A stretch of DNA of 12,390 nt, from positions 1-12,390 of the forward strand of contig WLNG01000017.1 in assembly GCA_009699915.1 (NCBI GenBank), read 5' to 3'. Every line of letters begins with the position of its first letter. The first letter of the stretch is position 1. The notes beneath the pieces were generated by a model that was not told the origin of the DNA, did no database searches, and worked only from the letters and a program-made list of their open reading frames with translations. This DNA comes from Actinomycetota bacterium (GTDB taxonomy: Bacteria > Actinomycetota > Thermoleophilia > Solirubrobacterales > Solirubrobacteraceae). The position numbers were made by a program, and so were the translations under genes. Shown one piece after another: positions 2,193 to 12,143 of the stretch.

Positions 2193-3623
2193 CTAGAGCG
2201 CCGCGAGTTCCTGCGTGATCTGGCCGACCGACGCCTTCGCGTCCCCGAAGAGCATCGAGGTCATCGGTTCGTAGTAGAGCTCGTTCTCGATCCCCGCGAA
2301 GCCCGGGTTCATCGACCGCTTCAGAACGATCACGGACTTCGCGTGGTTCACGTTCAGGATCGGCATGCCGTAGATCGGCGACTGTGGGTTCGTCTTCGCC
2401 GCAGGATTCGTGACGTCGTTCGCGCCGATCACGACCGCCACATCGGTGCGCGTGAACTCCGGGTTGATCTCGTCCATCTCCTTGAGCTGCTCATACGGGA
2501 CATCGGCCTCGGCCAACAGGACGTTCATGTGTCCCGGCATGCGCCCGGCGACGGGATGGATCGCGTACTTCACCTCGACGCCGCGCTTCTCGAGCTCCGT
2601 CGCCATCTCGCGCACCGCATGCTGCGCCTGCGCGACCGCCATGCCGTATCCCGGGACGATGACCACCAGGCGCGCATAGGCCATCTGGATCGCCGCGTCC
2701 GCCGCAGAGGTGGCGCGCACGCTGCCGGCGTGCTCTCCGGCACCCGAAGCGCCCGCCACAGCGCCGCCGCCGCCGAAGCCGCCGGCGATGATCGACGGGA
2801 TCGAGCGGTTCATCGCGCTGGCCATCAGCCGCGTGAGGATCGTGCCGGAGGCGCCGACGATCATCCCGGCCACGATCAGCGCGGTGTTGTTCAGCGCGAG
2901 CCCAGTGGCCGCCGCGGAGAGCCCGGTGAACGCGTTCAGGAGCGAGATCACCACCGGCATGTCGGCACCGCCGATCGGCAGCACCACGAACAGTCCGAGC
3001 GCCGCGGCCGCGACGAGCAGCGCGACCATGAGCCAGCCCGCCGTGCCGCCTGCGGCAATCGCCGCAGCGCAGCCGATGGTGACCAGCAGCAGCGCGAGAT
3101 TGAGCAGCTGCTGGCCTACCCCCTTGAGCCCGATCGGCCGACCGGGGAGCACCTCCTGCAGCTTCCCGAAGGCGATCAGCGATCCCCAGAAGCTGATCGA
3201 GCCGACGATCGCCCCGAACAGCGAGGGGATCACGAAGGTCAGGGGGTCGCCGTCATACCCGGAGCTCTCGATGAACTCGGCCCAGGCGATCAGCGCGATC
3301 GCGCCACCGCCGACGCCGTTGAAGAGCGCCACCATCTGTGGCATCGCGGTCATCTTCACCTGCCGTGCCGCGGGGACGCCGACGACCGTGCCGACGACGA
3401 GGCCCGCGGCGATCAGCGCCCAATTGTGGCCCATTCCCGGCAGCAAGAAGGTCGCGACGATCGCGAGCAGCATCCCGACTGCAGCGATGCGGTTGCCACG
3501 CACGGCGGTGCGCGGCCCGGTCAGGCCCATCAGTCCGAAGATGAAGAGCCCGAACGCCACGATGTAGAGCGCGTTGATGAAGTCCTGATCGCGCACAAAG
3601 GACGAGGCCAGCGGAAGCGTCAC
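2193..3623 (-). CDS. pntB: NAD(P) transhydrogenase subunit beta
   Basis: This is the membrane plus NADP(H)-binding subunit (domains II and III) of the proton-translocating transhydrogenase, which couples hydride transfer from NADH to NADP+ to proton entry. The protein has 476 residues, close to the family's usual size. Residues about 14-290 form a series of hydrophobic helices carrying the conserved MPQMVALFNGVGGGA block (94-108). After a flexible Gly/Ala linker (about 281-300), the soluble domain shows VPGYGMAVAQAQH (323-335), the NADP-binding segment, then HPVAGRMPGHMNVLLAEA (356-373), GANDVTNPAA (400-409) and the HAKSVIVLKRSM...GFAGIENELYY region. The start is the GTG at 3623, preceded by GGAGG with a 7-nt spacer. 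It overlaps the pntAB stop in a GTGA arrangement, which indicates translational coupling. A longer in-frame reading extends upstream but has no family similarity. Identification is very secure. Confidence 0.97.
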   Translation of the reverse strand: MTLPLASSFVRDQDFINALYIVAFGLFIFGLMGLTGPRTAVRGNRIAAVGMLLAIVATFLLPGMGHNWALIAAGLVVGTVVGVPAARQVKMTAMPQMVALFNGVGGGAIALIAWAEFIESSGYDGDPLTFVIPSLFGAIVGSISFWGSLIAFGKLQEVLPGRPIGLKGVGQQLLNLALLLVTIGCAAAIAAGGTAGWLMVALLVAAAALGLFVVLPIGGADMPVVISLLNAFTGLSAAATGLALNNTALIVAGMIVGASGTILTRLMASAMNRSIPSIIAGGFGGGGAVAGASGAGEHAGSVRATSAADAAIQMAYARLVVIVPGYGMAVAQAQHAVREMATELEKRGVEVKYAIHPVAGRMPGHMNVLLAEADVPYEQLKEMDEINPEFTRTDVAVVIGANDVTNPAAKTNPQSPIYGMPILNVNHAKSVIVLKRSMNPGFAGIENELYYEPMTSMLFGDAKASVGQITQELAAL

Positions 3624-3934
3624 TGCTTGTCCTCCGGCTCGTCGGGCTTGGCCGTGGGCTTCGCCTTGAACATCTCGAGCATGCGGTCGGTGACGAGGAA
3701 ACCGCCGACGACGTTGATCGTCCCGAAGACGATCGCCACAACGAGGATCACCTTCGTGAAGGCGCCGAGGTCCGGATAGAAGCCGAGCACGAAGATCCCG
3801 CCGACCACAACGATCCCGTGGATCGCATTCGTCCCGGACATCAGCGGGGTGTGCAGCGTGTTGGGGACCTTGGAGATCACCGCGTAGCCGAGGAACCCTG
3901 AGACGACGAGGATCGCGAGATTCGTGACGAACAT
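3620..3934 (-). CDS. pntAB: NAD(P) transhydrogenase subunit alpha part 2 (membrane segment)
   Basis: This 104-residue membrane protein corresponds to the C-terminal helices of E. coli PntA, encoded separately here as in Rhodospirillum-type three-subunit transhydrogenases. It helps form the proton channel with PntB. Three hydrophobic helices are visible (about 3-20, 38-53, 60-80). The conserved loop SKVPNTLHTPLMSGTNAIHG (21-40) follows the first helix, and the VFGTINVVGGFLVTDRMLEMFK ending is typical. A short charged, Pro/Lys/Glu-rich tail follows. The ATG at 3934 is the right start: GGAGG lies 4 nt upstream and overlaps the TAG stop of pntAA. The reading upstream of it (to about 4006) is arginine-rich antisense-like material overlapping pntAA. 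The stop overlaps the pntB start, so the three genes are clearly one operon. Confidence 0.95.
   Translation of the reverse strand: MFVTNLAILVVSGFLGYAVISKVPNTLHTPLMSGTNAIHGIVVVGGIFVLGFYPDLGAFTKVILVVAIVFGTINVVGGFLVTDRMLEMFKAKPTAKPDEPEDKQ
3631..3635 (-). promoter_or_regulatory. Ribosome-binding site GGAGG of pntB
   Basis: A GGAGG lies 7 nt upstream of the GTG at 3623, inside the last codons of pntAB. It fixes the pntB start at this GTG rather than at any of the in-frame candidates further upstream, which would run through the coding region of the preceding gene. Confidence 0.8.
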
Positions 3935-3942
3935 GTGGCCTC

Positions 3943-5085
3943 CTACGCCGCCCCGAGAGCGGCCTTCGCGCCGGGATGCAGGACCGCGCCGTCGCGCGTG
4001 ACGCACGCCCCGGCGACGATCTCGTCATCGAAGTCGAGCCGCAGCGAGGCCGATCCGCCATCGGTGCCATCGCTGATGAGCAATCCGAGCAGCTCCTGCA
4101 CGTTGCGCGCGTAGAGCTGGCTGGCGTGCTCGGCCATGTGGGCCGGGAGGTTCAGCGGCGAACGGATCGTGACGCCGTGGCGCACGACGGTCTCCCCCGG
4201 CTCGGTCAGCTCGCAGTTGCCGCCGGTCTCACCGGCCAGATCGATGATCACGCTGCCCGCCCGCATCCCCTCGACGGCCTGCGCGCTGACGAGCTTCGGG
4301 GCCGGCCGGCCGGGCACCAGCGCAGTCGTGATCACAACGTCGAAGCCCTTGATCGCGTCGGTCAGCGCCTGCTGCTGGGCCGCTCGCTCCTGCTCGGTGA
4401 GCTCGCGTGCGTAACCGCCCTCCCCAGCCGCCTCGATCCCGAGATCGAGGAACGACGCGCCGAGCGACTGGACCTGTTCGGCGACCTCGGGGCGCACGTC
4501 GTAGCCGGTTGTGACAGCGCCCAGGCGGCGGGCGGTGGCGAGCGCCTGCAGGCCCGCAACGCCGGCGCCCAGAACGAGCACCTTCGCGGGCGGGATCGTC
4601 CCGGCAGCGGTCATCAACATCGGGAAAAAGCGCCCGAGGCTCTCCGCCGCGATGATCACCGACTCATACCCGGCGACGTTCGACTGGCTGGAGAGCGCAT
4701 CCATCGACTGCGCGCGCGAGATCCGGGGCACGGCCTCCATCGCGAACGCCGTCACCTGTGCGTCGCGCGCCGCCGCTGTGGTCGCTGTGCTGGAGAGCGG
4801 CGCCAGAAACCCGAGCAGGACGGCGCCCGCGTTCATCCGCGCGATGTCGGTGGGCGCGGGCGGGGCGATCGTCACGACGACCTCCGCTCCCCAGATCGCG
4901 GCGGGATCCTCGGTGACGGTGGCGCCGGCCTCGGCGTACGCGTCGTCGGGAATCAGCGCGCCGGCGCCGGCGCCGCGCTCGACGAGCACCGTGACGCCGC
5001 GTGCGGTGAGCTTGCGCACCACCTCGGGGACGAGCGCGACCCGGGTCTCGCCCGGCGCTGTCTCCCGTGCCACTGCGAGCCTCAT
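3943..5085 (-). CDS. pntAA: NAD(P) transhydrogenase subunit alpha part 1 (NAD-binding)
   Basis: This is the soluble NAD(H)-binding domain I of proton-translocating transhydrogenase, 380 residues, related to alanine dehydrogenase. The N-terminus RLAVARETAPGETRVAL (2-18) is characteristic. RAQSMDALSSQSNVAGYESV (124-143) is the conserved block near the nicotinamide site. The Rossmann fingerprint GAGVAG is at 173-178, followed by YDVRPEVAEQV. IDLAGETGGNCELTEPGE (281-298) and SPLNLPAHMAEHAS (309-322) are further family blocks. It lacks membrane helices, as expected for the split arrangement. I chose the ATG at 5085; a TTG three codons upstream is in frame but adds nothing conserved. No clear Shine-Dalgarno precedes the ATG. 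It begins 49 nt after the S-component fusion gene in the same direction, so read-through from the B12 operon is possible, but an independent promoter cannot be excluded. Confidence 0.96.
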   Translation of the reverse strand: MRLAVARETAPGETRVALVPEVVRKLTARGVTVLVERGAGAGALIPDDAYAEAGATVTEDPAAIWGAEVVVTIAPPAPTDIARMNAGAVLLGFLAPLSSTATTAAARDAQVTAFAMEAVPRISRAQSMDALSSQSNVAGYESVIIAAESLGRFFPMLMTAAGTIPPAKVLVLGAGVAGLQALATARRLGAVTTGYDVRPEVAEQVQSLGASFLDLGIEAAGEGGYARELTEQERAAQQQALTDAIKGFDVVITTALVPGRPAPKLVSAQAVEGMRAGSVIIDLAGETGGNCELTEPGETVVRHGVTIRSPLNLPAHMAEHASQLYARNVQELLGLLISDGTDGGSASLRLDFDDEIVAGACVTRDGAVLHPGAKAALGAA

Positions 5086-5134
5086 TGGTGGCAAACGCTA
5101 CTGGGCGGCTGCGATGGCTCCTGTCCGCCGGTGG

Positions 5135-6709
5135 TCACGGGCGACGCAGGCGGAACGGCATCGGCCGACCGGCGAGTGCAGCCAGAGCCTGGGCGGTAAC
5201 CCAGACCGGGGTCTGCGTGCTGGTGCGGGAGTACCGGATCCTGCCGTTGTCCATCTGCAGCGAGCGCAGGTATTCGATCGGCGAGCGCGTCATCCCCGGC
5301 AGCCTGCGAGTGGCGCGCATGCCGATGGCGATCAGAGCCTGGATCGCCAGCGCGGTGGACTGCGCGTTCGACGCGCCCGGCGGCTGCAGCGCCCAGCCGC
5401 CGTCCATATTCTCGTGCCCGAGCAGCCACGAGGCGCCGCGTGCCGCCGCGCGCGGGTAGCGCGCTGCGACGAGCGCCTGCACCGCGGCAGCGGTGTCGTC
5501 GGAGCTGCTCACGCCGCGCCCGGAGTAGGAGAAGCCGCCGTCTTTGCCGGCGCGCGCCGCAAGCCACGAAGCGGCGCGGCGCACCACCGTGGAGCGCGAA
5601 CCCAGACCGCTCGCCCGCAACGCCAGGATCCCGTAAGAGGTCAGGTTGACGAGGCCGTCGAACGAGCCGTCGGAGTCCTGGGCGGCGCGCAGCCTGGTGA
5701 GCAGGCCGCCGGTCTGCGCGGAGATTCCGGCTGCGGCAAGCGCCAGCGCGGTGCGCTCGAGATCGGCGGTCGTGCGCGAGCGGCCCGCGTAGCGGCGCAG
5801 CAGCGACTCCGCCGATCGTCCGCGCCGGCGCACGGCGAGCGGATCGCGTCCGAGCGCAGCGATCCCGATCACGGTCCACGATGTCTGGACGGCGTTCGAG
5901 GAGGCGCCCTTCGCGGTGCCCCAGCCGCCGTCGGTGTTCTGCACACTCGCAAGCCACGTCGCGGCGCTGCCCGCCCGGGTCACGCTCATCGCCGCGGCAG
6001 GCTGGGCGGCGCCCCCAAGCCCCCAGCCGGCGACGAGCACGCAGGCGACGAGCAGCGTCACGAGTGGCGCCGCGCCCGCAGCCGGAGGCTTCGGCGCTAG
6101 GTCCTCCCAGTGCACGGCGAGGCGGCTGCGGAAGCGCAGCAGCGCACGTACAAGCATCGGACCGAACGCGAGCGCGAAGGCGACGTTTCCGACTGCGTGC
6201 GCAAGGTTGAAGGGGAGCGATGTGAGACTGATGGCCAGATACTGCCCGAACGTGTGACTCCCCGCATAGGTACTGAACACGGAGAGGTCCATCACCGCTC
6301 CAAAGGCCAGCCCCGCGGCGCCGCAGGCCACGGCGAGCGGCACCCGTCCGATGTCGCGCCCCGCGAGCCGTCCGAGCAGCGCGCCGAGCAGGCCGCAGAG
6401 CCCCCAGGCGACCATCTGCCACGGCGTCCATGGGCCCTGTCCGAAGACGAGGTTCGACGCGAGCGCCGCGACGGCCCCGACGACGAAGCCCGGCGCGCCG
6501 CCGAGTGCGAGCCCGGCGATCAGAACGATGTCGGTCGTCGGCTTGACGTTCGGGATCGGCGCAAAGGCGATCCGCCCGATCGCCGCGAGCGCCGCAAGCG
6601 TCGCGACGAGCGCCAGCGTGCGCGAATCGGCGTGGGAGCGCTCGTACCAGGTGAATCCGAGGATCAGGGCCAATCCGAGGACAACGAAGGAGGCCAGCTC
6701 CCAGGTCAC
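5135..6709 (-). CDS. ECF transporter S-component fused to a (alpha/alpha)6 prenyltransferase/transcobalamin-like barrel; predicted cobalamin substrate
   Basis: This 524-residue protein joins two modules. Residues about 1-205 are hydrophobic and resemble ECF S-components: PIPNVKPTTDIVLIAGLALG (51-70), then GFVVGAVAALASNLVFGQGPWTPWQMVAWG and a loop with NLAHAVGNVAF. These integral proteins bind the vitamin and dock on EcfT. After a cytoplasm-like linker (about 194-212) another membrane helix follows (214-231). Residues about 245-515 are a repeat domain with QNTDGGWG (257-264), QDSDGSF (344-350), KDGGFSY (389-395) and MDGGWAL (435-441). Six alanine-rich inner-helix segments (about 275, 318, 357, 404, 450, 502) give the number expected for an (alpha/alpha)6 barrel. 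The start is the GTG at 6709, coupled to the ATPase stop in a GTGA overlap with GAGG 7 nt upstream. The cobalamin role is inferred from the riboswitch and the DUF4430 partners. The fold assignments are from motifs. The fusion itself is a continuous frame. Confidence 0.88.
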   Translation of the reverse strand: MTWELASFVVLGLALILGFTWYERSHADSRTLALVATLAALAAIGRIAFAPIPNVKPTTDIVLIAGLALGGAPGFVVGAVAALASNLVFGQGPWTPWQMVAWGLCGLLGALLGRLAGRDIGRVPLAVACGAAGLAFGAVMDLSVFSTYAGSHTFGQYLAISLTSLPFNLAHAVGNVAFALAFGPMLVRALLRFRSRLAVHWEDLAPKPPAAGAAPLVTLLVACVLVAGWGLGGAAQPAAAMSVTRAGSAATWLASVQNTDGGWGTAKGASSNAVQTSWTVIGIAALGRDPLAVRRRGRSAESLLRRYAGRSRTTADLERTALALAAAGISAQTGGLLTRLRAAQDSDGSFDGLVNLTSYGILALRASGLGSRSTVVRRAASWLAARAGKDGGFSYSGRGVSSSDDTAAAVQALVAARYPRAAARGASWLLGHENMDGGWALQPPGASNAQSTALAIQALIAIGMRATRRLPGMTRSPIEYLRSLQMDNGRIRYSRTSTQTPVWVTAQALAALAGRPMPFRLRRP

Positions 6710-8340
6710 GGCGTCACCTCGAAGCTCATCCGGTCGCGCAGCAGGTCGCCGCCCTCCTGCGGACCGAGCACCGGCGGGTCCTCGCCGGCGAGCACGCGTG
6801 CGGTCTCCGTCGCGAAGTGCCATCCGCCGGAGAGGACCTCCGCGGCCGGGGCATCGGCGATCACGCGGCCGTCGGCGAGCAGCACGACACGGTCGGCAAG
6901 CGCTGCGGCGAACTCGGCATCATGCGTCGCGACCAGTACGGCGGCCCCGCTGGCCGAGAGCTCGCCCATGCGCTCGATCAGGTCGCCCTTCGCCGCGCGA
7001 TCCATCCCCCGGGTCGGCTCGTCGAGCAGCACGGCCGCGGGGGCGGTCCCTTCACCGAGCACGATCGCGAGCGCCAGCCGCTGACGCTCGCCGCCGGAGA
7101 GATCGCGCGGATGACGCCCCGCGAGCGCGGCGAGCCCAGCGGCCTCGATGGCCTCGACCGGCGCCTCATCGGCGACGCGCTCGTGCAGGAGATAGTCACC
7201 GGGGTTCTGCAGCAGCAGGGCGACCCGGCCCGCCGCCTCGACGCTGCCGCGCGTCGGCTCCTGCACGCCGGCCAGGTGGCGCAGCAGGGTGGATTTTCCT
7301 GCCCCGTTGCGGCCCATCACGGCCAGCCGCTCACCGGGGCGCACCTCAAGGTCGATTCCGCGCAGGATGCCGGGGCCATCAGAAAGCTCGTGCCACAGCC
7401 CGCGGACGCGCAGCGCAGCCGGGCCGCCGCGATCGCGCGAGCGCCGCCAGCCCGTGCGGCGACGATCGGCCGGCCCGGGCGCCACGGCGGCGCGCTGCGG
7501 CTGGTCCTCGCGCAGCAGACCGTGCGCGCGCAACGTGGCGCGGGCCTCCTTCACGCCGGTCGGCGCAGGGCGCAGCCCGGCACGGGCGAAGAGGCGCGCG
7601 GCAGGGGTCTGCAGCGCGGGCATGCGCTCCGCTGCCCAGCCGAGCATCTCGCGGGGCGGGGCGTCGCAGGCGACGCGGCCGTCCTCCAGCACGATCACGC
7701 GGTCGGCGTGCGCCATGCAGCGCTCGAGCCGGTGCTCGGCAAGCAGCACAGCGGTCCCCTGCTCCTCGTTGAGACGGCGCAGCAGCCAGACCAGCTCGTC
7801 ACCGGCGACCGGATCCAGCTGCGAGGTCGGCTCGTCGAGCACGACGAGCTTCGGACGGCCGGCGAGCGCCGCGCCGAGGGCGACCCGCTGGAGCTCACCG
7901 CCGGAGAGCTCGTGCGTCGGGCGATCGAGCAGCCGCGCGATACCGAGCGCCAGCGCAGCCTCCTCCACACCACGTGCGACCGCCGCTCGCGAGGCGCCGC
8001 GGTTCTCCAGTGGGAACGCGAGTTCCGAACGCACCGTCCCCATGACGATCTGCGTCTCAGGGTCCTGAAGCAGCGTCCCGCAGACCGCTGCGAGGTCCCC
8101 CGGGCCGTGGTGGCGCGTATCGAGACCGCCGGTGACGACACGGCCGCTCGCGCTTCCGCCGTGGAAGTGCGGGACCAGCCCGCAGGCCGCGCGCAGGAAG
8201 GTGGACTTGCCGGAGGCGGAGAGACCGGCGACGACGACGAACTCTCCGGGTTCGACGCTCAGTGTCACCTCGCGCAGCGACGGCTCAGCCACTCCCGGAT
8301 AGGTGTAGGAGAAGGCGTCGAACTCGAGGACGCGGCTCAT
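6706..8340 (-). CDS. ecfA: ECF transporter ATPase, two ABC domains in one chain (EcfA-EcfA' type)
   Basis: This is the energising ATPase of an energy-coupling-factor importer, 544 residues containing two complete ABC cassettes, so one chain could supply both halves of the usual EcfA/EcfA' pair. Domain 1 has Walker A GLSASGKST (39-47), Q-loop Gln92, signature LSGGE (145-149), Walker B LVVLDE (165-170) and switch His203. Domain 2 has Walker A GRNGAGKST (343-351), Gln378, LSGGE (414-418), Walker B AVLLDE (436-441) and His473. All catalytic residues are therefore present in both. The linker (about 255-307) is rich in Arg and Pro. The ATG at 8340 overlaps the ecfT stop (ATGA) and has a G-rich Shine-Dalgarno (GGGGGG) about 7 nt upstream. 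Its stop overlaps the S-component gene start. The dedicated operon points to a group I ECF transporter with its own S-component. The identity as an ECF ATPase rests on the EcfT and S-component neighbours. Confidence 0.95.
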   Translation of the reverse strand: MSRVLEFDAFSYTYPGVAEPSLREVTLSVEPGEFVVVAGLSASGKSTFLRAACGLVPHFHGGSASGRVVTGGLDTRHHGPGDLAAVCGTLLQDPETQIVMGTVRSELAFPLENRGASRAAVARGVEEAALALGIARLLDRPTHELSGGELQRVALGAALAGRPKLVVLDEPTSQLDPVAGDELVWLLRRLNEEQGTAVLLAEHRLERCMAHADRVIVLEDGRVACDAPPREMLGWAAERMPALQTPAARLFARAGLRPAPTGVKEARATLRAHGLLREDQPQRAAVAPGPADRRRTGWRRSRDRGGPAALRVRGLWHELSDGPGILRGIDLEVRPGERLAVMGRNGAGKSTLLRHLAGVQEPTRGSVEAAGRVALLLQNPGDYLLHERVADEAPVEAIEAAGLAALAGRHPRDLSGGERQRLALAIVLGEGTAPAAVLLDEPTRGMDRAAKGDLIERMGELSASGAAVLVATHDAEFAAALADRVVLLADGRVIADAPAAEVLSGGWHFATETARVLAGEDPPVLGPQEGGDLLRDRMSFEVTP

Positions 8341-9215
8341 CGCTCGACCCCCCGCCGGTTCCAGAACGGAACGAGTGCAGCGGCGACGATCAGGACCGCC
8401 AGGACGATCACCCCGAGTCCCCCCTCCGCGTGCAGGCGCGGGTACGCGTCAAAGGCCGCGACGCCGGTGATCGCGGCGGCGACGCCGAGTGCGATCAGTG
8501 CGAGGCCGGCCGCAAGAACGCCGACATCATGGCGCGACCATGGTTCACGCGGTCCGGACGGAGCGCTGCGCCGCGTCGCGTAGCCGCGCAGCTCGAGCGT
8601 CGCAGCGACGTCGACGGCCCGGTCGAGCGCGCCGGATGCGACGGCGCGCACGACGGCCACTCGGCCGCGGGTCGTACTCATGTCCTCGGCGTTCGGCCTG
8701 CAGCGCATGGCCTGATCCATGCGCTGCGCGTCACGCGCGAGCACCGGCACCATTCGCGTCGCCAGCGTTGCCGTCAGCGCTGAGCGGAAGGACCTGCGGC
8801 CGAAGGCGCGCAGGATCGCGTCCGGATCGACGCAGGCCGTCAGCAGCGCGAAGGCGAGCACGATCACGACGACACGCATCCCCAGCAGTGCGCCGTACAC
8901 CAGCGCCTCGAGCGTGATGTCGACCTGCCCGAACGGCGGAATCTCGCCGAAGCGCCAGACCACGGTGAGCCCATCGCGCACGACGATCGCGTTCACGAGC
9001 GTGATCGTCACGGCGAGAAAGAGCGAGAATCGCGCCGCGCGCACAAGGTCCGATCCGACGCCGGCGCGCCACCCGGCCGCGAGCACAGCGACCGCGATCG
9101 CGGCCAGGACGACGGGATGCGTGAATCCCAGCGCCAGGCCGACCAGCGCCAATCCGTAAAGCGCCGTGACACCGGCGCGCGCCGCGTGCAGGGGGCTCGC
9201 GCGATGGCGGTACAT
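8337..9215 (-). CDS. ecfT: ECF transporter transmembrane subunit EcfT (CbiQ family)
   Basis: This 292-residue membrane protein is the scaffold coupling the ATPase to the S-component. Hydrophobic helices are visible at about 16-30, 34-49, 61-79, 101-126, 230-254 and 266-283. The cytoplasmic part between about 130 and 215 carries the coupling helices. The second of the two Ala-Arg-Gly-type motifs is recognisable as AATLELRGYATR (204-215); the first is only weakly matched near AMRCRPNA (169-176), where Pro-Asn replaces the expected Gly. VDPDAILRAFGRR (129-141) and LATRMVPVLARDA (151-163) fit the family. The gene sits between a DUF4430 lipoprotein gene (1-nt TGATG overlap) and ecfA (ATGA overlap), so tight translational coupling is likely. 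CbiQ of cobalt importers belongs to the same superfamily, but no CbiM or CbiN is present here. Confidence 0.92.
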   Translation of the reverse strand: MYRHRASPLHAARAGVTALYGLALVGLALGFTHPVVLAAIAVAVLAAGWRAGVGSDLVRAARFSLFLAVTITLVNAIVVRDGLTVVWRFGEIPPFGQVDITLEALVYGALLGMRVVVIVLAFALLTACVDPDAILRAFGRRSFRSALTATLATRMVPVLARDAQRMDQAMRCRPNAEDMSTTRGRVAVVRAVASGALDRAVDVAATLELRGYATRRSAPSGPREPWSRHDVGVLAAGLALIALGVAAAITGVAAFDAYPRLHAEGGLGVIVLAVLIVAAALVPFWNRRGVER

Positions 9216-10147
9216 CAGCGGGCCGCCTCGAGCGGCAGGCCGACCGGTCCGCCTGAATCGACTGCGACCGCGTACCTCCGCCGCAGGACCTGCGGCTCGA
9301 GCGCGCGTGCCGCGGCGAGCACGCCGGCGGCATCGGTGCCGGTCACGACCCAGACCGGCGGGTCCTCGCCCACGCGGGTCGCCGCGACCAGTCCGCCGCC
9401 TGGACCCAGCGTGCGCACCGTGCGCCCGGCGGGGTCGAGCAGCGCGATCGCGCGGCCCCGGTCCTGCGGGCGGGCGTAGATCCCGCTGGCGGCGGGGCCG
9501 TCCTCCAGTACGACGAGTGCCCGCTCAGCGCCGATCTGCTCCCAGGTACCGACGATGATGCGCAGCGACTCGCCCGCAGCCGTCGCGCGCAGCGGCGCGA
9601 CCCCGTCGCCGACGTCCTCGCGGCCGAGCGCCTGCCGCACCGCTCCGCAGGCGGCGTCCTTCACATCGGCGCACTCGATCCGCGTCGGCAGGCGCCCCGG
9701 CACGCCCGGCCCGTGGCGGAATGGCTCGGGAAACTGGCCGACCACCGCGGGCACTCGCTCGGCGACGCTCCAGTCGCGCAGATCCCACCAGATCGAATCG
9801 TTGGCGCGGACCCGGGTCGCTGCCGCACCCTTGGGCGCCTCGACCCCATTGACGAAGTAGAACCAGTCATAGTTTCTCCCCCCGCGGCGCCCGCCGCAGA
9901 GGTCCTTGACACATTGGACGAAGCCGCCGCCGTAGCGGGTCTTCAGCTGGGCTTCGCGTGCCAGCAAGCGCATCGCCGTCTCGGACGCAGGCACCTTCGT
10001 CACAGCGGTCTCGGTGACCGCCACCGCGCCGAAGTCGCGCGTGACGCGCAGACGCACCGCGGCGGTGTCCTTGCCGGCGCCCGGGCCACAGCCGGGCGCG
10101 CTGATCAGGATCGCGATGGTCCCCACCACCGGCATCACGATCCGCAT
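9215..10147 (-). CDS. DUF4430 (transcobalamin beta-domain-like) probable lipoprotein with an uncharacterised C-terminal domain
   Basis: The 310-residue product begins with a short hydrophobic signal sequence ending in SAPGC (16-20). Cys20 is the likely lipid attachment site, although the lipobox is not ideal (Ala at -3, Pro at -2, Gly at -1). Residues about 30-127 match the DUF4430 pattern: a strand, a helix with SETAMRLLAREA (55-66), two cysteines in CVKDLC (79-84), then YDWFYFVNGVEAPKG (93-107) and a NDSIWWDLRDW end (116-126). DUF4430 is homologous to the cobalamin-contacting beta domain of transcobalamin and intrinsic factor. Residues about 133-300 form an alpha/beta-looking region I do not recognise, with LRIIVGTWEQI (195-205) and VWVVTGTDAAGVLAAARAL (265-283). 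I chose the ATG at 10147 because of GGAGG 8 nt upstream and the better signal peptide; an ATG at 10165 is also in frame. The inferred role is surface capture of cobalamin for the adjoining ECF importer. Confidence 0.88.
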   Translation of the reverse strand: MRIVMPVVGTIAILISAPGCGPGAGKDTAAVRLRVTRDFGAVAVTETAVTKVPASETAMRLLAREAQLKTRYGGGFVQCVKDLCGGRRGGRNYDWFYFVNGVEAPKGAAATRVRANDSIWWDLRDWSVAERVPAVVGQFPEPFRHGPGVPGRLPTRIECADVKDAACGAVRQALGREDVGDGVAPLRATAAGESLRIIVGTWEQIGAERALVVLEDGPAASGIYARPQDRGRAIALLDPAGRTVRTLGPGGGLVAATRVGEDPPVWVVTGTDAAGVLAAARALEPQVLRRRYAVAVDSGGPVGLPLEAAR

Positions 10148-10155
10148 GCGCCCGG

Positions 10156-10160
10156 CCTCC
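10156..10160 (-). promoter_or_regulatory. Ribosome-binding site GGAGG deciding the lipoprotein start
   Basis: GGAGG with an 8-nt spacer precedes the ATG at 10147. The upstream in-frame ATG at 10165, only 3 nt after the preceding stop codon, lacks a comparable site and would add a charged LEAGR prefix before the signal peptide. Confidence 0.65.
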
Positions 10161-10168
10161 AGCATCGA

Positions 10169-11329
10169 TCAGCCCACGAAGAAGACGACGCGGTTGCGGA
10201 TCTTCGACGGGTCGGCAGCGCGCCGGAAGTAGCGGCTGGCGTTGCCTGCGGCGTCGGTCAGCCGCACGTCGAGGACGTAGCGGCCGCCCTTGAGAGCCGC
10301 GGGCAAGAGGTAGGACCAGGCGGCCCGATCCCCGACGGTGAACCAGTGGCCGCGCTCGGCGCCGCAGCGCCTCATGTCCAGCCAGCGCTCCTGACGCACG
10401 TCGTAGGTCTCACAGCGCCGATCGCCACCCGCGTTCGCAGGCACGCGGCGAGTCAGGCGCAGCTGGACGCGCCGCAGGCCCGACGCATCAGTCGCGGCCA
10501 TCCCGCGGAGCAGTCGCGGCGCCGCGCCGGGCGGGTAGCGGCGGCCGTCGCGCAGCGTCGCGATGCGCCCGTGCGGCGCGCGTCGATCGGCGACGGTGCC
10601 GCAGCGCCCGTCGTAGCCGGTCGTCACGCAGGCGGCGATAGTGGCGCTGGGGGTAGACCCGTCGCGCGTGGCGCGCAGGTCGGTGACGCCGACGGTGGTG
10701 AGCGTGATGCGCGCAGTGCCGTCGGCCCCGGTCGTCGCCGAGCCGCCGCCGGGGAGCGCGATCTGCGCACCGGCAGCCGGGCCGCGGCGGATCCCCGCGG
10801 TCGCCCCGCCAACGAAGTCGTTAGCCGCCTCGGTGACGCTGGCGGTGAACGCCACGCCCGCGCGGATCGCCGCCGGGATGGAAAGGTCGAGCAGCGTCAC
10901 GGAGAAGTCTCCCGCCGAGTTGGGGATCGGCGCGAAGACCGCTTCGTCGCCTTCCTGCACCGGCTGCTGGCAGATCCCGACCGTCGCGGCCGTCCCGTTG
11001 ACGAAGAACCCCCAGTAGTAGGGATCGCTGTAGGTGAACGCCTGGCCCTTGATCGCGTCGATGCCGTAATCGCCGAACCCGTCGTACCAGGTCCCGTCCC
11101 AATCTCCGGCGGTGGCCCGATCGAGTGCCGCCGCGGCGGTCGCACCGCCGCACGTGCCGCCGAACTTGACCAGCTCGACGCCGGTGGCGGCGACCGGAGT
11201 ACGTGGGAGCAGTGTCGAGGTCACTCCCTCGACGCGCACCGACATCGACGCGGAGGCCGCAGCCCAAGCGCAGACCAACGACGACATCAGGACAACGGTC
11301 AGAAGACCACAAAAGCGCAGCGTGCGCAT
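10169..11329 (-). CDS. Secreted DUF4430 (transcobalamin beta-domain-like) protein, first gene of the B12 operon
   Basis: The product has 386 residues and a Sec-type signal peptide (basic MRTLR, hydrophobic core 8-23, probable cleavage after ASA at about 27). Residues about 28-135 are a DUF4430 domain of the actinobacterial type: SMSVRVEGVTSTLLPRTPV, paired cysteines Cys60 and Cys120, DGTWYDGFGDYGIDAIKG (78-95), YYWGFFVNGTAATVGICQQ (104-122) and QEGDEAVFAP (125-134). Residues about 140-235 look like an Ig-like/big-domain module (IPAAIRAGVAFTASV, TTGADGTARITL). Residues about 245-386 form another beta-rich module with Ig-like strands (DASGLRRVQLRLTRR; GGRYVLDVRLTDAAGNASRYF). No membrane anchor is visible at the C-terminus. 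The ATG at 11329 lies 40 nt after the cobalamin riboswitch, with an AAGGGG Shine-Dalgarno about 10 nt upstream. A longer in-frame start would run into the riboswitch. Three nucleotides or so separate its stop from the next gene's first possible ATG. Cobalamin binding is inferred from the domain family and the riboswitch. Confidence 0.9.
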   Translation of the reverse strand: MRTLRFCGLLTVVLMSSLVCAWAAASASMSVRVEGVTSTLLPRTPVAATGVELVKFGGTCGGATAAAALDRATAGDWDGTWYDGFGDYGIDAIKGQAFTYSDPYYWGFFVNGTAATVGICQQPVQEGDEAVFAPIPNSAGDFSVTLLDLSIPAAIRAGVAFTASVTEAANDFVGGATAGIRRGPAAGAQIALPGGGSATTGADGTARITLTTVGVTDLRATRDGSTPSATIAACVTTGYDGRCGTVADRRAPHGRIATLRDGRRYPPGAAPRLLRGMAATDASGLRRVQLRLTRRVPANAGGDRRCETYDVRQERWLDMRRCGAERGHWFTVGDRAAWSYLLPAALKGGRYVLDVRLTDAAGNASRYFRRAADPSKIRNRVVFFVG

Positions 11330-11369
11330 AAACGAGCCACCCCTTTCCGCGAGGGCGTATGTGCTTGAT

Positions 11370-11527
11370 GGCCGGAGGCAGGTCTCCTGGCTCCCGGGCA
11401 CCGTTCCCGCGCCTTCCCGGAGCCCCGTCGGCTCCAGTGGCTGCTTGCGCATGCGGGGCGGTATCACGCCCGGTCACAGTGGCGGGTCCGCGCCGGATTT
11501 ACACCGGACTTCCCTTTTCCACCGACC
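11370..11527 (-). ncRNA. Cobalamin (AdoCbl-type) riboswitch
   Basis: On the minus strand the leader carries the hallmark blocks of the cobalamin riboswitch in the right order. AAAAGGGAAGTCCGGTG (about 11517-11501) is followed by TAAATCCGGCGCGGACCCGCCACTGTGA, then GCAGCCACTGG, GGGAAGGCGCGGGAAC, and finally the B12 box AGCCAGGAGACCTGCC (11392-11377). Closing stem P1 can form between GGTCGG (11527-11522) and CCGGCC (11375-11370), including one G-U pair. The element ends 40 nt before the start codon of the DUF4430 gene. No U-tract follows a stem in that interval, so control of translation initiation is more likely than transcription termination. It should repress the whole downstream cassette when cobalamin is plentiful. 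Confidence 0.96.
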
Positions 11528-11539
11528 TTGAACACAGCG

Positions 11540-11545
11540 AGCATA
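11540..11545 (-). promoter_or_regulatory. Candidate -10 element TATGCT for the riboswitch transcript
   Basis: TATGCT (four of six positions match TATAAT) lies 12 nt upstream of the first P1 base of the riboswitch, so transcription would start just ahead of the aptamer, near 11533. No good -35 hexamer is found at 16-18 nt; TTGACG at 11578-11573 is too far away (27 nt). This is a positional argument only. Confidence 0.35.
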
Positions 11546-11567
11546 CCCCAGCGCTAGGCTCGACTCT

Positions 11568-12143
11568 GTGACCGTCAATCTCACCCGGATCTACACGCGC
11601 CTCGGCGACGACGGCCAGACCCATCTGGGCGACATGAGCCGCGTCTCCAAGACCGATGCACGCATCGAGGCGTACGGCACCGTCGATGAACTCAACAGCC
11701 ACATCGGCGTCACGCTGACGGTCGGCGGGATGCCCGAGACGTTCATCACCTGGCTGCGCCGGATTCAGAACGACCTCTTCGATGTCGGCGCCGACCTCGC
11801 GGTCCCCGAGACCAGCGGCGACGGCGGCGACGAGCGCGGTCGCCTGCGCGTGCGCGCTGAGCAGGTCACCTGGCTCGAGCAGCGCTGCGACGAGGTCAAC
11901 GCGACCCTTGCCCCGCTGAAGTCGTTCGTCCTGCCGGGTGGCACGACTGCGGCAGCGCACCTGCACGTCTGCCGCACCGTCTGCCGCCGAGCGGAGCGAC
12001 GCGTTCTCTCCGTCGAGGGGTCGAGCCCCGAGGTGCTGCGCTACCTCAACCGCCTCTCCGACCTGCTCTTCATCCTGAGCCGCGGCGCGAACGCCGGCGA
12101 CGAGCCGCTCTGGCAGCCCGGGCTCTCGCAGGATCAGGCCTAG
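11568..12143 (+). CDS. pduO: PduO-type ATP:cob(I)alamin adenosyltransferase
   Basis: This cytoplasmic enzyme transfers the 5'-deoxyadenosyl group of ATP to cob(I)alamin (or cobinamide), making coenzyme B12. The 191-residue length is typical. The N-terminal ATP-binding segment TRLGDDGQTHLGDMSRVSK (10-28) is followed by RIEAYGTVDELNSHIG (32-47). The C-terminal half has SFVLPGG (119-125), HLHVCRTVCRRAERRV (131-146), containing the catalytic-region Arg and Glu residues, and VLRYLNRLSDLLFILSR (156-172). All expected motifs are present. The start is GTG at 11568; no strong ribosome-binding site precedes it, and TAGGCT at 11555-11560 could be a -10 element, which would make the mRNA nearly leaderless. 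It is divergent from the B12 operon and shares about 40 bp of upstream DNA with it, so it is not itself under the riboswitch. Functionally it would process the cobalamin imported by the ECF system. Confidence 0.96.
   Translation: MTVNLTRIYTRLGDDGQTHLGDMSRVSKTDARIEAYGTVDELNSHIGVTLTVGGMPETFITWLRRIQNDLFDVGADLAVPETSGDGGDERGRLRVRAEQVTWLEQRCDEVNATLAPLKSFVLPGGTTAAAHLHVCRTVCRRAERRVLSVEGSSPEVLRYLNRLSDLLFILSRGANAGDEPLWQPGLSQDQA

What the first reader, a model, noticed from the sequence alone, without database searches (positions are those of the whole stretch)
5135..11527. B12-riboswitch operon encoding a split transcobalamin-like binder together with a complete ECF importer
Seen in sequence: one riboswitch followed by two exported DUF4430 proteins, EcfT, a double-ABC EcfA, and an S-component carrying a barrel-type repeat domain, all coupled by short gaps or overlaps. 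Established: animal transcobalamin and intrinsic factor hold cobalamin between an (alpha/alpha)6 barrel and a beta domain homologous to DUF4430. Inference: the two halves are supplied here by different chains. The barrel is fixed to the importer, and one or both DUF4430 proteins act as the lid or capture partner, passing cobalamin straight to the S-component. This would replace the periplasmic binding protein of BtuFCD systems.
Basis: partly seen in the sequence, partly recalled or inferred. Interest (0 to 1): 0.88.

Follow-up and report, generated by a model that had tools for sequence, protein, structure and literature searches.

The report
Vitamin B12 importer with built-in catcher
A bacterium of the Solirubrobacterales carries one B12-controlled gene set for a vitamin B12 importer whose membrane subunit has a barrel domain fused to it, next to two secreted proteins related to part of the B12 carriers of animals; the general kind was predicted in 2007, but this fused form looks like an undescribed variant.

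Summary
Confirmed: a cobalamin riboswitch (RF00174, 88 bits, minus strand) heads five tightly coupled genes: two exported DUF4430 proteins (D1; D2 lipoprotein-like), EcfT, double EcfA, and an S-component carrying an extra TM segment and an alpha/alpha barrel. An adenosyltransferase diverges upstream. The substrate is well supported: 53 of 55 loci with enough upstream sequence have the riboswitch; the S-component's best PDB match is CbrT, a proven B12 S-component (1.8e-28); 44 of 50 relatives with the system lack a corrin-synthesis marker. The lid-and-barrel idea is partly supported. Comparison changes the picture: most Bacillota operons read carry a single-chain barrel-DUF4430 protein, and about half also carry a second, paralogous barrel. 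The window's barrel is of the second kind, fused to S at least twice independently; it co-occurs with D2's C-terminal domain (22 of 22 operons against 4 of 21), though five operons of one family break this. So D2, rather than D1, is the likelier partner. Burroughs et al. 2007 already predicted DUF4430/toroid B12 scavenging with CbiO/CbiQ genes. New variant of a known kind.

The parts
11360..11565 (-). cobalamin riboswitch aptamer (RF00174)
   Evidence: cmscan 88.1 bits, E 4.1e-21, full model length; only RF00174 match in the held genome
10169..11329 (-). D1: exported protein with DUF4430 domain (about 10934-11065) and an Ig-like C-terminal stretch
   Evidence: PF14478 1.2e-7, Big_13 3.6e-4 under its cut-off; N-terminal hydrophobic segment; start ATG 11329 inferred
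9215..10165 (-). D2: lipoprotein-like DUF4430 protein (domain about 9779-9979) with its own C-terminal domain, here called D2C (about 9233-9760)
   Evidence: PF14478 2.3e-10; APGC lipobox-like site by eye
8337..9215 (-). EcfT (CbiQ family)
   Evidence: PF02361 3.6e-14
6706..8340 (-). double ATPase EcfA, two ABC domains in one chain
   Evidence: PF00005 two stretches, 1.7e-41; TIGR04520 7.3e-81, 271.5 bits, under its cut-off of 315
6098..6709 (-). S-component part of the fusion, CbrT-like
   Evidence: PF12822 2.3e-7; profile of 25 of 60 S-domains: best PDB match 6fnp_A 1.8e-28
6026..6082 (-). extra hydrophobic segment, probably transmembrane, between S-component and barrel
   Evidence: mean hydropathy 2.22 over 19 residues
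5135..5980 (-). alpha/alpha barrel (toroid) domain, six inner-helix repeats by eye, fused to the S-component; ends at the stop codon
   Evidence: PF13243 1.9e-10, PF00432 4.3e-7; alignment A5 of 68 barrels
11568..12143 (+). PduO-type cob(I)alamin adenosyltransferase, divergent
   Evidence: PF01923 5.7e-63; TIGR00636 over cut-off

Best explanation
This is a B12-repressed, CbrT-type ECF importer for cobalamin (or cobinamide) with extracytoplasmic capture proteins. When cellular cobalamin is low the riboswitch leaves the operon on (inferred from the riboswitch class). EcfT and the double EcfA drive the S-component, which takes B12 through the membrane as CbrT does (inferred from homology). The barrel, held outside by the extra TM segment, and the membrane-tethered DUF4430 lipoprotein D2 together catch B12 from outside and pass it to the S-component (inferred; no binding or structure data). 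D1 is a second, more divergent secreted DUF4430 protein that may fetch B12 farther from the membrane (speculative). Shown: gene content, riboswitch, kinships, conservation, paralogy of barrels, co-occurrence of D2C with a free or S-fused barrel. Not shown: B12 binding, contact of D2 with the barrel, transport.
For: Riboswitch: 53 of 55 loci with at least 700 nt upstream of the first DUF4430 domain, out of 80 fetched (46 by a typed pattern, 7 more by Rfam; all 8 pattern hits that I put to Rfam were confirmed); 31 of 32 relatives of the same order by Infernal, the miss (G002) being a contig that ends inside the operon (my reading of its coordinates; the 32 are those of the 50 system-bearing relatives whose neighbourhood I had fetched and kept); 20 of 20 Bacillota loci (picked from 61 DUF4430-bearing genomes of 199, because two DUF4430 hits lay close together). 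In four Actinomycetota genomes that I take for Coriobacteriia the only RF00174 hit, under the cut-off (23-29 bits), lies at the start of this operon. S-component: 6fnp_A (CbrT) 1.8e-28, next 4hzu_S 0.0023; 6FNP is ECF-CbrT, CbrT binds CN-cobalamin with Kd about 9 nM (PMC5997447, passages). In L. delbrueckii cbrT sits with pduO (passages); here pduO is the divergent neighbour. DUF4430 profile: PDB hits Transcobalamin-1 3.8e-7, RUMGNA_00854 1.4e-5, Transcobalamin-2 1.4e-3. Auxotrophy: CbiC (PF02570) in 6 of 50 relatives with the system and 8 of 11 without, Fisher 1.2e-4; all 61 have PF02310 B12-binding; Burroughs et al. report the same trend (passages). S-barrel fusion arose at least twice (19 Actinomycetota rows in one starred clade, one Bacillota row elsewhere). 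D2C-positive operons have a free or S-fused barrel in 9 of 9 (Bacillota) and 13 of 13 (other Actinomycetota); D2C-negative in 2 of 10 and 2 of 11. A chain with barrel then DUF4430 is present in 16 of the 19 complete Bacillota operons and in L214.
Against: The barrel profile hits squalene cyclases best, and no transcobalamin or intrinsic factor at E up to 0.01; PF01122 reaches its cut-off in 0 of 197 genomes. CbrT alone binds B12 with nanomolar affinity, so a catcher is not strictly needed. Five operons of one family (L054-L057, L069) have D2C but no barrel nearby. Two of 55 loci (L162, L207) have no RF00174 over the cut-off. Eight DUF4430-bearing genomes, five of them with the ECF genes beside DUF4430, show no RF00174 under strict filters. 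Five system-bearing relatives, six with G056's remnant, also have CbiC. The Fisher tests ignore relatedness, and one search left out incomplete loci.
Confidence: 0.6

Rival explanations
1. Cobalamin importer as above, but the DUF4430 proteins catch B12 on their own or with other partners, and the barrel has a mechanical or docking role at the S-component (for example steadying or recruiting it) without touching B12.
For: Barrel is fused to S, not to DUF4430, in the window's order; five operons have no nearby barrel; barrel not detectably transcobalamin-like.
Against: D2C and free or S-fused barrels co-occur across two phyla; paralogous barrels are fused to DUF4430 in Bacillota, as a toroid is to the beta-domain in transcobalamin (PMC1796856, passages).
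Confidence: 0.22
2. The barrel is an enzyme of the squalene/terpene cyclase kind, unrelated to B12 capture.
For: Best Pfam and PDB matches are squalene-hopene cyclases; repeats like QW motifs by eye; a DxDD-like site.
Against: D.DD[TS] is present in 27 of 68 (A5) and 7 of 30 (A1) barrels and the window reads SSDD there; one barrel of about 280 residues; predicted outside the cell; next to B12-import genes in the loci read.
Confidence: 0.05
3. The system imports another corrinoid-related substrate (cobinamide, another cobamide, a lower-ligand base) or cobalt rather than B12 itself.
For: ECF-CbrT also carries cobinamide (PMC5997447, passages); EcfT falls in the cobalt CbiQ family; in C. difficile one cobalamin riboswitch controls an ECF transporter assigned to cobalt (PMC11477304, passages).
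Against: No CbiM or CbiN hit among the operon's proteins; S-component nearest to CbrT; a corrinoid adenosyltransferase next door; most relatives with the system lack CbiC.
Confidence: 0.1

Closest known systems
ECF-CbrT of Lactobacillus delbrueckii (6FNP)
   Same: S-component kinship (1.8e-28), ECF architecture, pduO neighbour, B12 substrate inferred
   Different: CbrT is a bare S-component sharing a common ECF module (PMC5997447, passages); here a dedicated EcfT/EcfA, an extra hydrophobic segment, a barrel and two DUF4430 proteins belong to the operon
SLBB (transcobalamin-like) / toroid proteins in CbiO-CbiQ operons, predicted by Burroughs et al. 2007 (PMC1796856)
   Same: DUF4430-type domains, alpha/alpha toroids, paired secreted SLBB proteins, CbiO/CbiQ genes, usual lack of B12 synthesis, B12 scavenging proposed
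   Different: the text gives toroids fused to SLBB; the words riboswitch, S component and energy-coupling do not occur in it; a toroid on a transporter subunit is not in the passages I read
Transcobalamin, haptocorrin and intrinsic factor of animals
   Same: beta-domain homologous to DUF4430; alpha/alpha toroid class of barrel
   Different: one soluble chain; barrel family PF01122 not detected here; no transporter subunit attached
SCO2321 family membrane protein (NF053823)
   Same: the window protein matches at 3.8e-30, best stretch in the barrel
   Different: 105 bits against a cut-off of 300, so not a member as NCBI defines it; the model states no function
Surface B12-binding lipoproteins of Bacteroides/Bacteroidetes (BtuG, BtuH)
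   Same: surface proteins that capture B12 before import (PMC6143338, PMC8941943: titles and starts of abstracts in a listing; the name BtuG is recalled)
   Different: other protein families in Gram-negative bacteria; kinship not tested

Membership tests
Cobalamin riboswitch RF00174 | score over the curated cut-off | tested here: met
   88.1 against 31.5 bits
ECF transporter, CbrT-like | EcfT, two ATPase domains, S-component | tested here: met
ECF transporter, CbrT-like | S-component nearest to CbrT among solved structures | tested here: met
   6fnp_A 1.8e-28, next 0.0023
ECF transporter, CbrT-like | binds and transports cobalamin | not testable with these tools
   needs an assay
Transcobalamin/intrinsic factor | DUF4430-type beta-domain | tested here: met
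   profile hits Transcobalamin-1 and -2
Transcobalamin/intrinsic factor | N-terminal barrel of family PF01122 | tested here: not met
   no PF01122 hit for the window barrel at E up to 10 (HMMER's filters drop most weak hits); 0 of 197 genomes over cut-off
Transcobalamin/intrinsic factor | barrel and beta-domain in one chain | tested here: not met
   separate genes in the window; one chain only in relatives such as L214
Transcobalamin/intrinsic factor | B12 held between barrel and beta-domain | not testable with these tools
   structure prediction switched off
Squalene/terpene cyclase | DxDD catalytic site (recalled as defining) | tested here: not met
   SSDD in the window; 27 of 68 and 7 of 30 complete
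SCO2321_fam NF053823 | score over 300 bits | tested here: not met
   105.1 bits
BtuFCD | BtuF-type periplasmic binding protein in the operon | tested here: not met
   no such Pfam hit among the six proteins scanned; the rest of the genome was not searched for it

The most novel reading that the evidence does not exclude
A B12 clamp assembled from two different chains at the membrane: the barrel tethered to the S-component and the lipoprotein D2 close over B12 like transcobalamin, and the loaded clamp hands B12 directly to the S-component on the same polypeptide, a capture-and-transfer device that I found described for no ECF transporter.
Probability: 0.4. Interest if true: 0.75.

Novelty: new variant of a known kind. 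Interest (0 to 1): 0.55.

Why it matters
ECF transporters are generally held to bind substrate with the S-component alone (recalled; CbrT does so). A conserved B12 family with a tethered catcher would be an exception, would show how Gram-positive bacteria can compete for scarce B12 without BtuF, and would give a bacterial setting for the origin of animal B12 carriers, which Burroughs et al. [quoted passage not shown] The two kinds of barrel and the D2C-barrel co-occurrence name the exact pair to test.

Tried and rejected
The typed riboswitch pattern missed 8 loci of which Rfam found RF00174 in 7, so pattern misses were not counted as absences; L207, first judged by pattern only, was put to Rfam for this check and is also negative. 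Transcobalamin kinship of the barrel was sought with a barrel profile, the L214 single chain (no PDB hit at E up to 10), Pfam at E up to 10 and PF01122 in 197 genomes: none. Conserved D, N and Q positions at the inner helices looked like corrin-contacting residues of intrinsic factor that I recalled, but I could not check the register and dropped the claim. Alignments meant to combine barrel and DUF4430 rows for the L214 chain failed. A leader hairpin at the D1 start is no better than shuffles (z 0.74). The DUF4430 tree gives a D2 clade but not the origin of D1. I first took L128 for a DUF4430-barrel chain; Pfam does not bear that out, and it now counts only as seen by eye. Viral and metagenome collections were not searched.

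Rows left out: A1 used 30 of the 51 barrels, A2 34 of 97 DUF4430 domains, A3 27 of 29 fusions, A4 25 of 60 S-domains, A5 67 of 69 fetched barrels plus the window. One search left out 1 of 20 and 12 of 36 loci as incomplete and did not include the window's own order. One search left out 16 of 80 loci that do not reach D2 and 9 of 64 with little upstream sequence. Searches used a hand-picked part of the loci; short barrel matches (such as that of the L214 single chain) were not in the tree.
Full report
What is in the window. On the minus strand a full-length cobalamin riboswitch (11360-11565, 88.1 bits) is followed by D1 (DUF4430), D2 (DUF4430), EcfT, a double EcfA and an S-component with a C-terminal barrel; spacing is a 3-nt gap and then overlaps of 1, 4 and 4 nt. 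A PduO-type adenosyltransferase starts at 11568 on the plus strand. The window's genome is an unnamed MAG, 60.6% complete, with no other RF00174 or DUF4430 match. The nearest named loci are mostly Solirubrobacterales MAGs, with Conexibacter and Svornostia among them.

Topology. D1 starts with a hydrophobic, signal-like segment, D2 with one that ends in a lipobox-like APGC; a loose script pattern found a lipobox-like site in 91 of 110 loci with D2 (the two sets overlap in genomes), and most of the printed misses have an N-terminal hydrophobic stretch by eye. After the S-domain comes a basic loop and another hydrophobic segment, then the barrel. With both ends of a six-helix S-component inside (recalled), this puts the barrel outside. 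Three separately encoded barrels that I read begin with signal-like sequence (L052; L115; L214's second barrel gene). This is inference, not a measured topology.

Conservation. The S-barrel protein has a match in 50 of 61 genomes searched, the window's own included. Of 80 fetched loci (the 80 best of 223), 64 reach D2; 55 of these have at least 700 nt upstream of the first DUF4430 domain and 53 of the 55 have the riboswitch: 46 by pattern and 7 by Rfam only. Eight of the 46 were put to Rfam and all 8 were confirmed. The two without, L162 and L207, are negative at Rfam's cut-off. The barrel follows S in 60 of the 64; in the other four the contig ends there. A divergent PduO gene within 400 nt is seen in 23 of the 55 loci that have a riboswitch (not the same 55).

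Substrate. Three lines agree: the riboswitch; S-component kinship to CbrT, whose B12 binding and transport are measured (PMC5997447, passages); and genome content. CbiC, a corrin-synthesis enzyme, is present in 6 of 50 relatives with the system and 8 of 11 without (Fisher 1.2e-4; with G056, which keeps only a remnant, moved: 5 of 49 and 9 of 12, 1.9e-5). All 61 have B12-binding domains. In the window's own genus the one genome with CbiC (G006) lacks the system. One marker gene was tested and the genomes are related, so these P values are rough. Burroughs et al. 2007 reported the same trend for bacteria with such domains (passages).

Wider picture. In several other Actinomycetota lineages the barrel is a separate gene after S; in others no barrel was found beside the ECF genes. 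Two genomes of the same class (G194, G134) split the system into two riboswitch units, D2-EcfT-EcfA-S and D1-barrel (L115; L119 and L135; in L119 D2C was not detected). In four genomes that I take for Coriobacteriia (no name given; judged from gene content) the genome's only RF00174 hit, under the cut-off, lies at the operon's start; eight further DUF4430-bearing genomes have none, five of them with the ECF genes beside DUF4430. In Bacillota (20 loci read, picked from 61 DUF4430-bearing genomes of 199 for two close DUF4430 hits), 20 of 20 have RF00174 over the cut-off upstream, and 16 of 19 complete operons carry one open frame with barrel then DUF4430, the order of transcobalamin (barrel E 2e-6 or better). 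L214 shows the whole thing: signal, barrel, DUF4430, ZU5 and three SLH domains right behind the riboswitch.

Two barrels. A tree of 62 hand-picked barrels separates DUF4430-fused barrels (16 of 17 in one clade, 95/94) from 46 others, free, S-fused and one DUF4430-fused (L266). Two rows labelled free, L128 and L130, sit in long chains where L130 has a weak DUF4430 match under the cut-off and L128 looks alike only by eye; both have long or moderately long branches. The window's barrel is in the second part, inside a starred clade of 19 S-fused rows; one Bacillota S-fusion (L259) lies elsewhere, so the fusion arose at least twice. Repeated fusion is good evidence that this barrel works at the S-component. 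Operons with D2's C-terminal domain have a free or S-fused barrel in 22 of 22 cases, against 4 of 21 without it (the window's order not included). Five operons of one family of the same order are exceptions, with D2C and no barrel nearby. D2's DUF4430 falls in one clade across both phyla (39 D2 rows with 3 others, support 95; quick tree, few columns).

Reading. The window keeps the second kind, welded to S, with D2, and has D1 in first place. D2 is therefore the likelier lid. Nothing here shows that lid and barrel meet or bind B12.

Prior work. Burroughs et al. 2007 (PMC1796856; abstract, passages, and sections 8 and 10 read) named the DUF4430-type domain in bacteria, its fusions to toroids in both orders, paired secreted proteins, and operons with CbiO and CbiQ, and proposed B12 scavenging. 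I found no experimental study of such a system, nor mention of a toroid fused to an S-component, in the listings of ten searches of the open library; those listings are capped and subscription papers, including Rodionov et al. 2009, were not available. Other papers: PMC10960864, PMC2667541 and PMC11477304 were seen as passages, PMC4350170 as one passage.

Noticed in passing
window 2193-5094 (-): ORFs that look like the NAD(P) transhydrogenase subunits PntA and PntB (recognised by eye, no family scan run) lie just downstream of the B12 operon.
   Followed up: no
L070 (G056): A decayed-looking copy: riboswitch and intact D2, then a fragment of EcfT and barrel remnants in broken frames; this genome has CbiC. 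An assembly error is not excluded.
   Followed up: partly
L122, L124, L128, L130: RF00174 hits under the cut-off (23-29 bits), each the genome's only one, lie at operon starts and suggest a divergent cobalamin riboswitch; eight other DUF4430-bearing genomes have no hit.
   Followed up: partly
L104, L111 and L122-L126: In L104 and L111 a beta-propeller-like protein (Pfam run on L104 only) stands between riboswitch and D2; in L122-L126 long chains join one to three DUF4430 domains to propeller-like repeats and end in a hydrophobic tail.
   Followed up: partly
L121 (G217, Streptomyces-like by gene content): Two divergent RF00174 hits (91.6 bits, and 26.9 bits under the cut-off) lie upstream of an operon with EcfT, EcfA, S, barrel and DUF4430.
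   Followed up: no
L054-L057, L069 (family f4): S-component without barrel and D2C without a nearby barrel; G048 has a weak barrel match on another contig (L058).
   Followed up: partly
L143, L149, L196, L181: Record titles call these genomes Bifidobacterium breve or Chlamydiae, but the loci resemble Solirubrobacterales ones; the labels look wrong.
   Followed up: no
L254, L260, L262; L257, L259, L261: Some Bacillota operons have two riboswitches in tandem (first three); some first genes show two barrel matches before DUF4430 (last three).
   Followed up: no
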